Assembly (NCBI RefSeq): GCF_009690625.1
Contig: NZ_CP033878.1
Span: 2,480,001-2,544,000, forward strand
Length of the DNA stretch: 64,000 nt
Direction of reading: 5' to 3'
DNA from: Halorhabdus sp. CBA1104
Lineage (GTDB): Archaea; Halobacteriota; Halobacteria; Halobacteriales; Haloarculaceae
Shown here: positions 13,633 to 39,242 of the stretch, in pieces
Numbering within the stretch: the first letter of the stretch is position 1
Layout: every line of letters begins with the position of its first letter
Program-made: the position numbers and the translations under genes
Notes under the pieces: model-generated
Seen by the model: only the letters and a program-made list of their open reading frames with translations
Database searches by the model: none
What the model was told of the DNA's origin: nothing

Positions 13633-14979
13633 ATGGACGTGCAGTTTCTGGGCGGCGCTCGCGAAATTGGTCGGAGCGCGGTCCTGATCGACGATCGACT
13701 GCTCGTCGACTTCGGGATGCAGACGGCGACGCCGCCGCAGTTTCCACTCGATGCAGACCCCGAAGCAGTCGTCGTCAGCCACGGCCACCTCGATCACGTC
13801 GGGACGATCCCCGCCCTGCTGTCGGGTGATCGGCGGCCGCCGATCCACTGGACGCCACCGACTCGTGAGTTGGCGCTGACGCTGGCCCGGGACACGATCA
13901 AACTCCACGGTGGCACCTACGACTGCCCCTTTACGGAGCAGGAAGTCAAGCGAGTGACGCAAGTTAGCGAGACGCACGGCTATCGAGAGCCCTTCGAGGC
14001 GGCTGGCTACGAGGTCACGTTCTTCGACGCCGGGCACATCCCTGGGAGTGCCCACGTTCTGATCGACGACGGCGAGACGCGACTGCTGTACACGGGTGAC
14101 TTTCACACGGGCGATCACCGCGGGAGCGACGCTCCCGCGAGCCGTACGGATCGGCGCGGCAGGCCGATCCGTGGACAGCGACTCGTCGCCGGCACCACTG
14201 CCCGGCCCGACGCCGACGTCGTGATCACCGAGAGCACGTACTCGGACGTGACCCACGAGGACAGAGCAGCGATCGAAGACCGGTTCGCCCAGAGCATCAA
14301 GACGACGCTGTGGGAGGGTGGGACGGTCGTGATCCCGGCCTTTGCGATCGGCCGGACCCAGGAAGCCATGCTGATCTGTGCGGCTCACGACATCCCCTGT
14401 TACGTCGACGGGATGGGGACGCACGTGACGGAATTGCTCCGTCGCCATCCTGAATTCCTCCGCGATCCCGAGGCACTCCAGCGGGCCAAATCACACGCTC
14501 GCTTCGTCACGGGGAGAGACGGGCAAAGCGGGGGCGGAGCCCCCGGATTCCGAGCGGGAGGCACCGGTGCCTCCCGCGAGGAGCGCGAGCGCATCGCCGA
14601 GCAGAACACGGCGATCATCACCACCTCGGGCATGCTCTCGGGCGGTCCGGCGATGACGTACGTTCCGGCGATCCGCGATCGCCCGGTGAACAAGATCGCG
14701 ATGACCGGCTACCAGGTCGCGGGCACGCCCGGCCGAGCGTTGCTAGAGACGGGCCGGGCCGAAATCGACGGCCAGGTGATGCCCGTCGCCGCCCAGGTCG
14801 AACAGTACGAGTTCTCCGCGCATGCTGACCGTGGCGGCCTGCTCGACTTTCTTGGGAACTACCGCGATTCGGAACTGCTCGTCGTCCACGGCGATCGAAC
14901 CGTCGACTTCGCCGCGGAACTGGCCGCAGACGGCTTCGACGCGTCGGCACCCGAACGCGGTGAGACGGTCACGCTGTGA
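13633..14979 (+). CDS. beta-CASP metallo-beta-lactamase nuclease (archaeal CPSF/RNase J type)
   Basis: 448 residues. Motifs in order: FLGGAREIGRS, SHGHLDHVG (metal site), GHIPGSAHVLID, TESTYSD, the beta-CASP block PAFAIGRTQEAML, TTSGMLSGGPA, EFSAHADRGGL and LLVVHGD. No N-terminal KH domains, so it is the short aCPSF2/RNase J-like form acting on RNA ends. Two in-frame segments without family equivalents, residues 163-180 and 299-315, each correspond to a pair of perfect DNA hairpins (see repeat entries) and encode low-complexity Gly/Arg/Ser-rich sequence. Catalytic motifs are intact, so the enzyme is probably active despite the insertions. Confidence 0.9.
   Translation: MDVQFLGGAREIGRSAVLIDDRLLVDFGMQTATPPQFPLDADPEAVVVSHGHLDHVGTIPALLSGDRRPPIHWTPPTRELALTLARDTIKLHGGTYDCPFTEQEVKRVTQVSETHGYREPFEAAGYEVTFFDAGHIPGSAHVLIDDGETRLLYTGDFHTGDHRGSDAPASRTDRRGRPIRGQRLVAGTTARPDADVVITESTYSDVTHEDRAAIEDRFAQSIKTTLWEGGTVVIPAFAIGRTQEAMLICAAHDIPCYVDGMGTHVTELLRRHPEFLRDPEALQRAKSHARFVTGRDGQSGGGAPGFRAGGTGASREERERIAEQNTAIITTSGMLSGGPAMTYVPAIRDRPVNKIAMTGYQVAGTPGRALLETGRAEIDGQVMPVAAQVEQYEFSAHADRGGLLDFLGNYRDSELLVVHGDRTVDFAAELAADGFDASAPERGETVTL
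14119..14172 (+). repeat. paired-hairpin insertion A (inside beta-CASP gene)
   Basis: Two adjacent perfect hairpins. Stem 1 is 10 bp (14119-14128 with 14130-14139). A 6-nt spacer follows. Stem 2 is 10 bp (ACGGATCGGC at 14146-14155 with 14163-14172), loop 7 nt. The unit is 54 nt, a multiple of three, and encodes residues 163-180 where relatives go directly from FHTGD to a short loop. Confidence 0.75.
14529..14577 (+). repeat. paired-hairpin insertion B (inside beta-CASP gene)
   Basis: Stem 1 is CGGGGGC-GGA-GCCCCCG (14529-14545). After an 8-nt spacer, a 24-bp perfect palindrome occupies 14554-14577. The encoded segment is GGGAPGFRAGGTGAS-like, lying between FVTGRDG and RIAEQNTAIITTSGML, which are normally near each other. 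Confidence 0.75.
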
Positions 14980-19888: not shown

Positions 19889-20641
19889 ATGTCGGGAGGA
19901 AATCACGAAACCGGTACCGACGGTGGACAACCGCAAGATGGACAACCAGCCCACCCCCAGGAGGGCCAGCAGGGCCAGCCAGAGCAACAGGCACCGCCAC
20001 AAGGCGGACAGCAGGGCCAGCCAGAGCAACAGGCACCGCCACAAGGCGGACAGCAGGGCCAGCCAGAGCAACAGGCACCGCCACAAGGCGGACAGCAGGG
20101 CCAGCAGCACCAGCAGGGTGTCCCACAGCAACCTGCGGGCCAACCCGGCTACGGCCAGGGGCGGGGCGGCTCGGCGTTGGGGCCTGACTTCCAGAAGTTC
20201 GGCAAACTCGGGCTCGGCGTGTATCTCACGATCGGACTGGGCTCGTTAGTCATGCTGTTTCTCGTGTCTACGCTCGCTGGGGACAGCGTTAGCGGTGTCG
20301 CTGGCATCTCGATAGCCAGCGAGCAAGCGCTGTTCGTGGCGTCGTACGGTGCCTTCGAGTTCACTATCATTCTCTCGCCGCTGGTTGCGATCGGACTGGG
20401 CTTTTTCGTCGCCCAGCGGGTCTCGCCGGGGTCGTCACCGCCGGCCGTCAGTGCAGCGGTCAACGGTGGCGCTGTGCTCGGGACACTACTTCTGCTGGCC
20501 GTGTTCGTCATCCTCTTTGCCCCCGAGATGGCGTCTCCGTCGTTCGGTGACTTGCTCACGCCGGCGATCGGCGTCGCGATCGGTGCTGCTGTGATCGGCG
20601 CGGCCGGGAGTACGTTGCGCGAGCGCTTCCAGCAGTGGTAG
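19889..20641 (+). CDS. membrane protein with a Gln/Pro/Gly tandem-repeat N-terminal region
   Basis: 250 residues from ATG 19889. The first 95 residues are hydrophilic and made largely of Gln, Pro and Gly, including three exact copies of a 14-residue unit (QPEQQAPPQGGQQG) from a 42-bp DNA tandem repeat. Four hydrophobic segments fill residues 110-245. Similar layouts (disordered Q/P-rich tail plus a four-helix membrane part) occur in haloarchaeal proteins of unknown function. Repeat number may vary between strains. I do not recognise a functional family. Confidence 0.75.
   Translation: MSGGNHETGTDGGQPQDGQPAHPQEGQQGQPEQQAPPQGGQQGQPEQQAPPQGGQQGQPEQQAPPQGGQQGQQHQQGVPQQPAGQPGYGQGRGGSALGPDFQKFGKLGLGVYLTIGLGSLVMLFLVSTLAGDSVSGVAGISIASEQALFVASYGAFEFTIILSPLVAIGLGFFVAQRVSPGSSPPAVSAAVNGGAVLGTLLLLAVFVILFAPEMASPSFGDLLTPAIGVAIGAAVIGAAGSTLRERFQQW
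19967..20092 (+). repeat. 42-bp tandem repeat, three exact copies
   Basis: Units begin at 19967, 20009 and 20051 with CAGCAGGGCCAGCCAGAGCA, identical over 42 bp, and a partial fourth copy starts at 20093. They encode the QPEQQAPPQGGQQG repeats. Confidence 0.95.
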
Positions 20642-37139: not shown

Positions 37140-37214
37140 AACTGCCTGGTGGGGCCTACAAAAACTGCGTCAGACGAGTGCATGACGGCTCGCTGATACA
37201 GACCGATAGCGCAT

Positions 37215-37236
37215 ACCTCCGTCTTCAGGCGGAGGT
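37215..37236 (+). repeat. left-end hairpin of the IS200/IS605 element
   Basis: 7-bp stem ACCTCCG/CGGAGGT with loop TCTTCAGG, the presumed TnpA recognition hairpin; the loop matches the right-end hairpin exactly. Confidence 0.75.
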
Positions 37237-37340
37237 CAAGCGGTAGGCATAGTGCGTCAATCCACAAGTCCCGCCATTACTGGATTTCCCACGCTTCACC
37301 GAAGGTATTAACACGCTGACGAACCATAGTGTGAACACGG

Positions 37341-37775
37341 ATGAAGACCACACGGCACGCGACCTACAACCTCAACTACCACATAGTGTGGTTGCCGAAG
37401 TCTCGCAGAACAGATGGTTCTGCGGACATCGCGGAACAGGGTTCCGCTCAGTACCGTCAGTCGGTACTCGTCTACGAGGTCGCCGACCGTGTGCGAGACA
37501 TCCTCCACGAGATCGCCGACGACAAGGGCTTGGAGATAATCGACCTGACCGTTCAACCCGACCACATCCACCTGTTCGTCAGTAGTCCACCGAAGCACGC
37601 GCCGTCACTTCTCGCCAACTGGTTCAAGGGTATTTCCTCGCGGAAATACAACCACCGCTACGCCGACAACGACGGCGAGAAGATTCGATGGGCACGGGGC
37701 TACTACGCAGGAACGGCGGGGCACGTTTCCAGCGAGACGGTGCAGGATTACATTCAGCGTCAACAGAACTCATGA
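37341..37775 (+). CDS. tnpA: IS200/IS605 Y1 transposase TnpA
   Basis: 144 residues. HUH motif in VQPDHIHLFVS (His75, His77) and catalytic Tyr137 in SSETVQDYIQRQ: the enzyme nicks and rejoins single-stranded DNA at hairpin-marked ends. Residues about 21-37 (SRRTDGSADIAEQGSAQ) interrupt the normal WLPKYRR-type sequence and coincide with a pair of perfect DNA hairpins (37404-37447). The stop codon lies inside another perfect palindrome (37762-37783). The insertion is close to the N-terminal strand of the Y1 fold, so activity may be altered. Confidence 0.9.
   Translation: MKTTRHATYNLNYHIVWLPKSRRTDGSADIAEQGSAQYRQSVLVYEVADRVRDILHEIADDKGLEIIDLTVQPDHIHLFVSSPPKHAPSLLANWFKGISSRKYNHRYADNDGEKIRWARGYYAGTAGHVSSETVQDYIQRQQNS
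37404..37447 (+). repeat. paired-hairpin insertion C (inside tnpA)
   Basis: Stem 1 CGCAGAAC/GTTCTGCG (37404-37424, loop 5 nt), spacer GACATC, stem 2 GCGGAAC/GTTCCGC (37431-37447, loop 3 nt). In frame, encoding the TnpA segment not found in relatives I know. Confidence 0.7.
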
Positions 37776-37811
37776 GTTCTGTTTGGCACACGAGAAACGC
37801 CGCGTTTCTCG
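37762..37811 (+). repeat. paired-hairpin insertion D (tnpA stop and tnpA-tnpB gap)
   Basis: A 22-bp perfect palindrome (37762-37783) that contains the tnpA stop codon, a 7-nt spacer TGGCACA, then CGAGAAACG-CCG-CGTTTCTCG (37791-37811), followed by GGACG. Spacer and trailing bases resemble those of pair E although the stems differ. Confidence 0.7.
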
Positions 37812-37822
37812 GGACGTCACAA

Positions 37823-37827
37823 GGAGG
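37823..37827 (+). promoter_or_regulatory. Shine-Dalgarno site of tnpB
   Basis: GGAGG 7 nt before the tnpB ATG. Strong SD sites are uncommon in this otherwise mostly leaderless or overlapping gene set and fix the tnpB start at 37835. Confidence 0.6.
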
Positions 37828-37834
37828 ATGACCA

Positions 37835-39130
37835 ATGACGGAACTCACCAAGACGCTGGAACTGAAACTGGTAGACCCGAACGCGCACAAACGGCGGAAA
37901 CTCCGCGAGACGCGGGACGCCTACCAGCAGGCCCTTCAAGATGCGTTCGACGCTGGTTGTACCACCCAGACCGAAGCGAACGACATGGTAGTCAACTACG
38001 ACCTGTCGGGGTACGCGAAGAACGCCCTCAAGAAGTACGTCCCGCAGTTGACGACGACGTACAACGCGGGCGACCTTCACGACGACCACCCTGTTCGGTT
38101 CACCAACGAGGGGGTACGCCTCGACCACCAGCCCAAGAACGCTATCGAGTGGTACGTCAAAATCCCGCACCACGAGGATTACCACCTCTGGATGCCAGCA
38201 CAGCCGAATCCCGACCAACGGGACTGGCTGGAAGCGTTGAACGCTGGTGACGCAGAGATGGGTGAGAGTCGGCTGTTCCAGCGGGATGGGACGTGGTATT
38301 TCCACGTCACCGCCACCCGCGACGTGGAGGATTGTTCCAAGGTGTCCGCCGATGAACGGACGCCGATCGGAGTGGACATTGGGGAAGCGTCACTCGTCAC
38401 GGTGTGTCACCGCGACGGCCACGGTTCTCCGACCCGCCCTGAACTATGGGCTGACGAAGGCAAAACCGTTCGTCGGCTTCGCAAGACCTACTTCACCGCC
38501 ACGCGACGGCTTCAAGAACGCGGAAGCGAGCGTCTCGCCGAGTCATTCGGTGACGACCTGTGGAACCAGATAGACGACGTGCTCCATCGTGTCACCCGCG
38601 AAGTCGTGGAGTACGCCGAATCCGTCGAGAATCCCGTGCTGGTTCTGGAAGACCTGACGTACATACGGGAGTCGATGGACTACGGCGAATATATGAACCG
38701 CCGTCTCCACGGATGGGGATTCGCCAAACTCCATGCGCAGATACGGTACAAGGCCGTTGAGAAGGGGATTCCTGTCGAGACGGTGAATCCTCGAAATACC
38801 TCGAAGGAGTGCCATGCGTGCGGTGAAGTTGGGTATCGCCCGAGGCAGGCGACGTTCAAGTGTACGAACGACGACTGCTGGATGGGCGAGTACCAAGCCG
38901 ATGTGAACGGGGCGATAAACATCGCAGACCGCTACCTCAGCGGAGAGAGTCGTTTCAGAGAACACGAGAACGACGATGACTCGGCTGAGGATGGGGCGTG
39001 TTTGACCGCGCCACAAGACAGCCAAGCCGTTAACGAATCGCGAAGCGATTCGTTCGCACACCAGAAATCTTCGATTTCTGGGGACGATGCTGAAGTCCAG
39101 CAGGAGACGCTTGGAACGTATGCGTCTTGA
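37835..39130 (+). CDS. tnpB: TnpB RNA-guided endonuclease (IS1341 type)
   Basis: 431 residues. RuvC residues are intact: Asp181 in PIGVDIGEASL, Glu272 in LVLEDLTYI and Asp356 in YQADVNGAINIADRY. The zinc ribbon Cys326, 329, 343 and 348 (CHACGEVG...CTNDDC) is complete. TnpB proteins are nucleases guided by an RNA made from the transposon right end and help retain the element. Residues about 400-416 come from hairpin pair E and replace a normally plain C-terminal linker before the conserved TLGTYAS end. Good candidate for an active nuclease. Confidence 0.92.
   Translation: MTELTKTLELKLVDPNAHKRRKLRETRDAYQQALQDAFDAGCTTQTEANDMVVNYDLSGYAKNALKKYVPQLTTTYNAGDLHDDHPVRFTNEGVRLDHQPKNAIEWYVKIPHHEDYHLWMPAQPNPDQRDWLEALNAGDAEMGESRLFQRDGTWYFHVTATRDVEDCSKVSADERTPIGVDIGEASLVTVCHRDGHGSPTRPELWADEGKTVRRLRKTYFTATRRLQERGSERLAESFGDDLWNQIDDVLHRVTREVVEYAESVENPVLVLEDLTYIRESMDYGEYMNRRLHGWGFAKLHAQIRYKAVEKGIPVETVNPRNTSKECHACGEVGYRPRQATFKCTNDDCWMGEYQADVNGAINIADRYLSGESRFREHENDDDSAEDGACLTAPQDSQAVNESRSDSFAHQKSSISGDDAEVQQETLGTYAS
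39032..39081 (+). repeat. paired-hairpin insertion E (3' end of tnpB)
   Basis: AACGAATCGC-GAA-GCGATTCGTT (39032-39054), spacer CGCACA, CCAGAAATC-TTC-GATTTCTGG (39061-39081), followed by GGACG. In frame, encoding NESRSDSFAHQKSSISG. Confidence 0.75.
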
Positions 39131-39138
39131 AACCACAG

Positions 39139-39175
39139 GGCCGACTCGTTCGGCCTGAAATCCCGTGGCGGGATT
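39139..39175 (+). repeat. hairpin pair F in the transposon right end
   Basis: GGCCGA/TCGGCC (39139-39155, loop 5), spacer TGA, AATCCCG-TGG-CGGGATT (39159-39175). Same two-hairpin layout as pairs A-E but non-coding and next to the terminal transposition hairpin. Confidence 0.7.
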
Positions 39176-39242
39176 CCCGCGTCTTCAGGCGCGGGAGGAG
39201 GTCAACCGAGGGCTTTTGCCCGTCAGCACCGACAGGCAGGAC

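What the first reader, a model, noticed from the sequence alone, without database searches (positions are those of the whole stretch)
37404..39195. Hairpin pairs concentrate in a transposon whose transposase recognises hairpins
Four of the six hairpin pairs lie within one 2-kb IS200/IS605 element, one of them next to the terminal transposition hairpin (39176-39195). TnpA-family HUH enzymes act on hairpin-marked single strands, and RAYT/REP systems show that relatives can mobilise separate palindromes. The beta-CASP copies could therefore be non-autonomous units moved by this or a related TnpA.
Basis: inference. Interest (0 to 1): 0.65.

Follow-up and report, generated by a model that had tools for sequence, protein, structure and literature searches.

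The report
Haloarchaeal hairpin-pair inserts inside an IS605
The paired hairpins in this salt-loving archaeon's IS200/IS605 transposon and in a neighbouring nuclease gene are short DNA inserts, mostly in frame, of a REP-like repeat class spread through about half of the haloarchaea sampled; they gather in IS605 elements, but whether the transposase moves them is not shown.

Summary
Observation partly confirmed. The IS200/IS605 is 37198-39205, inserted 3' of CTGAT without target duplication (empty site in a sister genome). Of its four hairpin pairs, three (37404-37447, 37762-37811, 39032-39081) are separate 51-57-nt insertions with clean empty alleles in other IS copies. The fourth (39159-39196) is the IS's own right end. 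Two more pairs are 60- and 57-nt in-frame inserts in a beta-CASP nuclease gene.

These are REP-like paired hairpins: about 45-60 nt, covarying stems, often CGTC...GACG tags. One subfamily core occurs in 147 of 292 haloarchaeal genomes, and its copies sit at CG at about a dozen distinct sites. IS605 loci (tnpA or tnpB) carry them about ten times more densely than random chromosome; 26 kb of DDE elements carried none.

The transposase link is unproven. Copy number correlates with tnpA, but equally with tnpB. The unit shared by beta-CASP genes lacks the CG signature, and none of seven other carriers has a detectable tnpA. The units lack the IS's CTGAT target and TCAA end.

Best reading: an independent REP-like element using IS605 as refuge and vehicle, moved by an unidentified, perhaps HUH-type, enzyme. 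New variant of a known kind.

The parts
37198..39205 (+). IS200/IS605 element, 2008 bp, inserted 3' of CTGAT, right end ...GGTCAA, no target duplication
   Evidence: empty site GGCTCGGTGAT|CCGAGGGC in G002
37341..37775 (+). tnpA, Y1 HUH transposase (PF01797)
37835..39130 (+). tnpB (Cas12f1-like TNB domain, PF07282)
37401..37451 (+). unit U3: 51-nt in-frame insert in tnpA (SRRTDGSADIAEQGSAQ); hairpins 37404-37424 and 37431-37447
   Evidence: empty alleles CCGAAG|TACCG in most of the other tnpA copies; covariation; second hairpin module also dispersed in G278 without tnpA/tnpB nearby
37760..37816 (+). unit U4: 57-nt insert at the tnpA stop codon, CG on both sides (37758-59, 37815-16); hairpins 37762-37783 and 37791-37811
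   Evidence: empty CAGCGTCACGAGG in other IS copies
39030..39086 (+). unit U5: 57-nt in-frame insert near the tnpB 3' end, CG on both sides (39028-29, 39085-86); hairpins 39032-39054 and 39061-39081
   Evidence: empty AAGCCGATGCTGAA in other IS copies; subfamily core in 147/292 genomes
39159..39196 (+). native IS right-end double hairpin (not an inserted unit)
   Evidence: recurs in IS copies with and without the other inserts
37216..37235 (+). IS left-end hairpin CCTCCGTCTTCAGGCGGAGG
   Evidence: sequence
13633..14979 (+). beta-CASP metallo-beta-lactamase nuclease gene (PF10996, PF07521, PF00753)
14116..14175 (+). unit U1: 60-nt in-frame insert; hairpins 14119-14139 and 14146-14172
   Evidence: clear inserts at the same site in 6 of 30 orthologues including this one, plus 2 decayed; empty in 22; low-confidence loop in AF2 model
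14527..14583 (+). unit U2: 57-nt in-frame insert found only in this genome; hairpins 14529-14545 and 14554-14577
   Evidence: empty in the other 29 orthologues aligned; pLDDT 24-47 loop

Best explanation
U3, U4 and U5 are independent insertions of short (about 45-60 nt) non-autonomous REP-like elements made of two hairpins joined by a 4-8 nt linker, often with outward tags CGTY...RACG. U1 and U2 in the beta-CASP gene have the same architecture but a different sequence, no tags and no CG signature. Shown: they are inserts (clean empty alleles); those inside genes keep the reading frame; the stems covary; the family is class-wide in haloarchaea and dense in IS200/IS605 elements with or without tnpA; the U4/U5 subfamily sits at CG dinucleotides. 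Inferred: they move as single-stranded hairpins cut and joined at CG by an HUH-type enzyme supplied in trans (an IS200/IS605 TnpA is the obvious candidate); IS605 elements act as refuge and vehicle; copies in host genes survive only where the frame is kept and the insert falls in a loop. The pair at the IS right end is the IS's own terminal structure.
For: Empty alleles for 70 of 210 units, including every class in this window; insert lengths of 45, 51, 54, 57 and 60 nt inside ORFs; CG on both sides at about a dozen distinct sites of the U4/U5 subfamily, several joining to the empty site at 28/28 bases; tags on both sides in 19/93 units against about 0.3% expected from a 5.3% background rate per side; covariation above all 500 shuffles and all slides; core 17-mer in 147/292 genomes, 58/76 genera, reversed control nearly empty; density contrast; arrays without tnpA/tnpB nearby in G278; inserts modelled in low-confidence loops; repeated gain or loss at the tnpA site, at least 15 changes, 7 forced by starred branches.
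Against: U1, U2 and U3 lack the CG signature and the tags, so one family for all is not proven. No enzyme identified. IS605-rich genomes trivially carry more IS605-borne copies. Stems that stay perfect can also arise by quasi-palindrome correction rather than selection or fresh insertion. The CG rule was found after the fact and several junctions are homologous.
Confidence: 0.7

Rival explanations
1. One reading: this IS's TnpA, or a close relative, mobilises all the pairs, including the beta-CASP copies.
For: Unit count correlates with tnpA (rho 0.42); all 14 multi-copy genomes checked have tnpA; REP-like architecture; U2 found only in this genome, which has 2 tnpA genes.
Against: 0 of 7 other genomes with the beta-CASP U1 unit have tnpA; equal correlation with tnpB; the IS target CTGAT and end TCAA are absent from the units; units occur in tnpB loci of a tnpA-less genome.
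Confidence: 0.15
2. IS200/IS605 only carries units that arose elsewhere; copies spread between IS copies by homologous recombination or gene conversion, without transposition of the unit.
For: Same insert at the same tnpA site on diverged backbones; the insert is less diverged at third codon positions than the right flank (0.14 versus 0.32-0.36).
Against: The same subfamily occurs at about a dozen different sites and in arrays away from tnpA/tnpB; the left flank is equally conserved in empty copies, so low divergence is not diagnostic.
Confidence: 0.25
3. The hairpins are made in place by replication template switching; no mobile element is involved.
For: Perfect stems with hypervariable 1-3 nt loops; no constant target duplication for U1-U3.
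Against: Shared linker (TCGCACA), tags and CG target across genera and sites.
Confidence: 0.12
4. The pairs are functional RNA parts of the IS (omega RNA or mRNA control elements).
For: U5 lies near the tnpB 3' end, where omega RNAs are encoded in related elements (my knowledge); stems covary.
Against: Most IS copies lack them at any given site and keep open tnpA/tnpB frames; beta-CASP is unrelated to the IS.
Confidence: 0.08

Closest known systems
CGTC-tagged REP dimers of bacteria, including Rickettsia RPE-4/RPE-6 (Di Nocera 2013, PMC3733652)
   Same: Short hairpins tagged CGTC, tags outward (their HH dimers), two different partners, intragenic copies, no identified transposase
   Different: Reported from five bacterial phyla, none archaeal, and not associated with transposase genes; stems 8-9 bp with 4-5 nt loops and a 3-nt tail mostly CCA, versus stems often 9-11 bp, loops 0-3 nt and TGTG/TGGC linkers here; here dense in IS200/IS605
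SMR-A/SMR-B and PATEs of Haloquadratum walsbyi (Dyall-Smith 2011, PMC3119063)
   Same: Haloarchaeal transposase-free mobile repeats; SMR-A preferentially target IS605-type transposons and PATEs; mobiliser of SMRs unknown
   Different: SMR-A about 110 bp with terminal inverted repeats, mostly outside ORFs; PATEs carry IS605-like ends; the units here are 45-60 nt hairpin pairs, often in frame inside tnpA, tnpB or host genes
REPINs mobilised by RAYT transposases (PMC3116915, PMC2817692 listed; details from my knowledge)
   Same: Two hairpins with outward tags, suspected mobilisation in trans by a Y1 transposase
   Different: CGTC rather than GTAG tags, CG at the junctions, no RAYT flanked by the repeat found

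Membership tests
IS200/IS605 (the carrier) | Y1 HUH TnpA and TnpB | tested here: met
   PF01797 and PF07282 hits
IS200/IS605 (the carrier) | insertion 3' of a short target without target duplication, subterminal hairpins | tested here: met
   CTGAT target, empty site in G002, LE and RE hairpins
CGTC-tagged REP superfamily | CGTC tag outside the hairpins | tested here: met
   U4 CGTC/GACG, U5 CGTT/GACG; 19/93 units tagged on both sides; not seen in U1-U3
CGTC-tagged REP superfamily | stem 8-9 bp, loop 4-5 nt, 3-nt tail mostly CCA | tested here: not met
   stems often 9-11 bp, loops 0-3 nt, TGTG/TGGC linkers
REP/RAYT (REPtron) | GTAG tag and a dedicated RAYT flanked by the repeat | tested here: not met
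   CGTY tags; units lie inside ordinary tnpA/tnpB elements, no RAYT found flanked by them
REP/RAYT (REPtron) | cleavage and transfer by a Y1 transposase | not testable with these tools
   needs biochemistry
PATE (IS605-derived) | IS605-like terminal palindrome and end sequence | tested here: not met
   units lack the RE/LE sequences and the TCAA end
SMR-A | about 110 bp with prominent terminal inverted repeats, targeting IS605-type elements | tested here: not met
   IS605 targeting met; length 45-60 nt not met
Rickettsia-type palindromic elements in ORFs | in-frame insertion in protein genes | tested here: met
   insert lengths multiples of 3 with clean empty sites

The most novel reading that the evidence does not exclude
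A class-wide archaeal REP-like system: hairpin dimers cut and pasted as single strands at CG dinucleotides by IS200/IS605 TnpA proteins in trans, repeatedly seeding in-frame peptides into transposases and a conserved RNA-processing nuclease.
Probability: 0.28. Interest if true: 0.75.

Novelty: new variant of a known kind. Interest (0 to 1): 0.5.

Why it matters
REP-like repeats with CGTC tags have been described in bacteria without a mobilising enzyme, and haloarchaeal repeats that target IS605 elements also lack one. A family in archaea that sits inside IS200/IS605 elements, at a fixed CG dinucleotide, gives a concrete substrate, target and candidate enzyme to test. It also shows short selfish hairpins entering conserved protein genes in frame in archaea, as known for Rickettsia.

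Tried and rejected
Two small argument errors. The first pair scan (loops up to 7, long stems) also caught chance coding palindromes in DDE transposases, so geometry was tightened. First beta-CASP insertion list was wrong for minus-strand loci and redone. MAFFT could not align all units, so no covariance model was built; per-site alignments were used. Rfam gave only a sub-threshold HgcC hit at the IS right end. An IS-wide four-unit reading was rejected because the 39159-39196 pair is native. Insert age by third-position divergence was inconclusive.

Full report
What is in the window. The window lies in a haloarchaeal genome of 2.63 Mb, one contig. The IS200/IS605 element carries tnpA at 37341-37775 (Y1_Tnp) and tnpB at 37835-39130 (TNB domain). 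A sister genome, G002, lacks the IS: its sequence ...GGCTCGGTGAT|CCGAGGGC... places the IS at 37198-39205, directly 3' of CTGAT and without target duplication, as expected for this family.

Hairpin pairs. A scan for two adjacent hairpins found pairs at 37404-37447 (U3), 37762-37811 (U4), 39032-39081 (U5) and, in a beta-CASP nuclease ORF (13633-14979), 14119-14172 (U1) and 14529-14577 (U2); Markov sequence gives about 0.45 pairs per 64 kb. The pair beside the terminal hairpin (39159-39196) recurs in IS copies irrespective of the other inserts and is the IS right end itself.

They are insertions. Among 30 beta-CASP orthologues, U1 is a clear 60-nt in-frame insert (in one genome within a longer insert) in six including this one, decayed in two and precisely absent in 22, including four members of the same genus; U2 is present only here. 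On the gene tree the U1 label needs six changes (three forced), so it was gained or lost repeatedly. In tnpA the 51-nt U3 insert is present in about two dozen copies and absent from the identical position in most others, with at least 15 changes on the tree, seven of them forced. U4 and U5 have empty alleles in other IS copies; over all loci, 70 of 210 units have one. Inserts inside ORFs are 45, 51, 54, 57 or 60 nt. An AlphaFold model of the beta-CASP protein puts both inserts in low-confidence loops.

They are a family. Stems covary in the U3 set (26 both-side cells, none of 500 shuffles as high) and in the U5 set (17 cells, likewise), and far exceed slid controls. In 93 units, CGTY lies 5' of the first hairpin in 27, its complement 3' of the second in 38, and both in 19, against a background of 5.3% per side. 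A U5 subfamily (ACGARWCGC..GCGWYTCGT-TCGCACA-CCAGAA..TTCTGG) recurs at several positions of IS605 elements. Its 17-mer core occurs in 147 of 292 genomes and 58 of 76 genera, with almost no hits to the reversed pattern. The second hairpin of U3 is itself dispersed: G278 holds 15 copies, in hairpin arrays with no tnpA or tnpB nearby.

Insertion site. For U4/U5-type units the joined flanks reproduce the empty site when CG is kept on both sides; this holds at about a dozen distinct sites, and one unit sits in the tag of another. This is either a 2-bp duplication of CG or transfer to a CG target by an element ending in CG. U1, U2 and U3 do not show it. The rule was noticed after the fact, and several junctions are homologous.

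Concentration in IS200/IS605. Strict pairs per 100 kb: 28.7 in the 80 TnpA loci (inflated by a search peptide inside U3), 10.3 in PF01797 loci, 15.6 in tnpB loci, 1.0-1.4 in IS flanks and chromosome samples, 0 of 26 kb in DDE elements, 0.33 in Markov sequence.

Is TnpA the mobiliser? For: core count correlates with tnpA (0.42), and all 14 multi-copy genomes tested have tnpA. Against: the tnpB correlation is 0.41 and both are largely built in; 10 of 32 tnpA-less genomes carry the core; G002 has no tnpA yet carries units beside or inside tnpB genes. None of the seven other genomes with a U1 unit has a Y1_Tnp hit, against 65 of 97 in the class (Fisher p 7e-4; 0.014 with the four genomes listed at 99% completeness; relatedness not corrected). 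The IS's own target (CTGAT) and end (TCAA) are absent from the units. U1 is old, so past mobilisation by a lost TnpA is not excluded.

Known relatives. Bacterial CGTC-tagged REPs share tags, orientation and intragenic copies, but were reported from bacterial phyla only and without transposase association (PMC3733652). Haloquadratum SMR and PATE elements share the IS605 link but are longer or carry IS605 ends (PMC3119063). Further searches of the paper library listed no description of these units; most subscription journals are not held.

Verdict. Real, widespread, insertional and REP-like; one of the four pairs in the IS is native; mobilisation by TnpA is plausible for the CG-type units, not shown, and not supported for the shared beta-CASP unit.

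Noticed in passing
39136-39218: Sub-threshold Rfam HgcC match (28 bits, gathering 50, E 6.6e-4) over the IS right end, where an omega RNA 3' end would lie.
   Followed up: no
L038:349-394 and L288:5785-5830 (own genome): Another similar hairpin pair, CCAAAAACnT(C)-CGAGCGCC..GGCGCTCG-cgaa-ACG..CGT-ATGCT, at two places in the own genome, the first upstream of an aldo-keto-reductase-like ORF.
   Followed up: no
L097:5052-5196: Three 51-nt tandem copies of a hairpin pair (GTGGTCGGGAAGCGACCAC-gaggttg-GTCGGACTCCGTCCGAC) near an IS605.
   Followed up: no
L008 (G004) and L033 (G020), beta-CASP gene: Further 45-nt in-frame inserts at other positions of the same gene, both carrying a TCGGACGCAGTCCGA hairpin.
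   Followed up: partly
19943-20110: Tandem repeats of a 42-nt unit encoding a Q/G/P-rich stretch.
   Followed up: no
L142 (Halorutilus salinus): Seven or more hairpin pairs inside and beside one IS605 element, the densest nesting seen.
   Followed up: no
G207, seven places: U3-type hairpin pair flanked by tnpA-like ccgaagtctg but mostly without tnpA/tnpB hits: looks like a multi-copy PATE-like remnant.
   Followed up: partly
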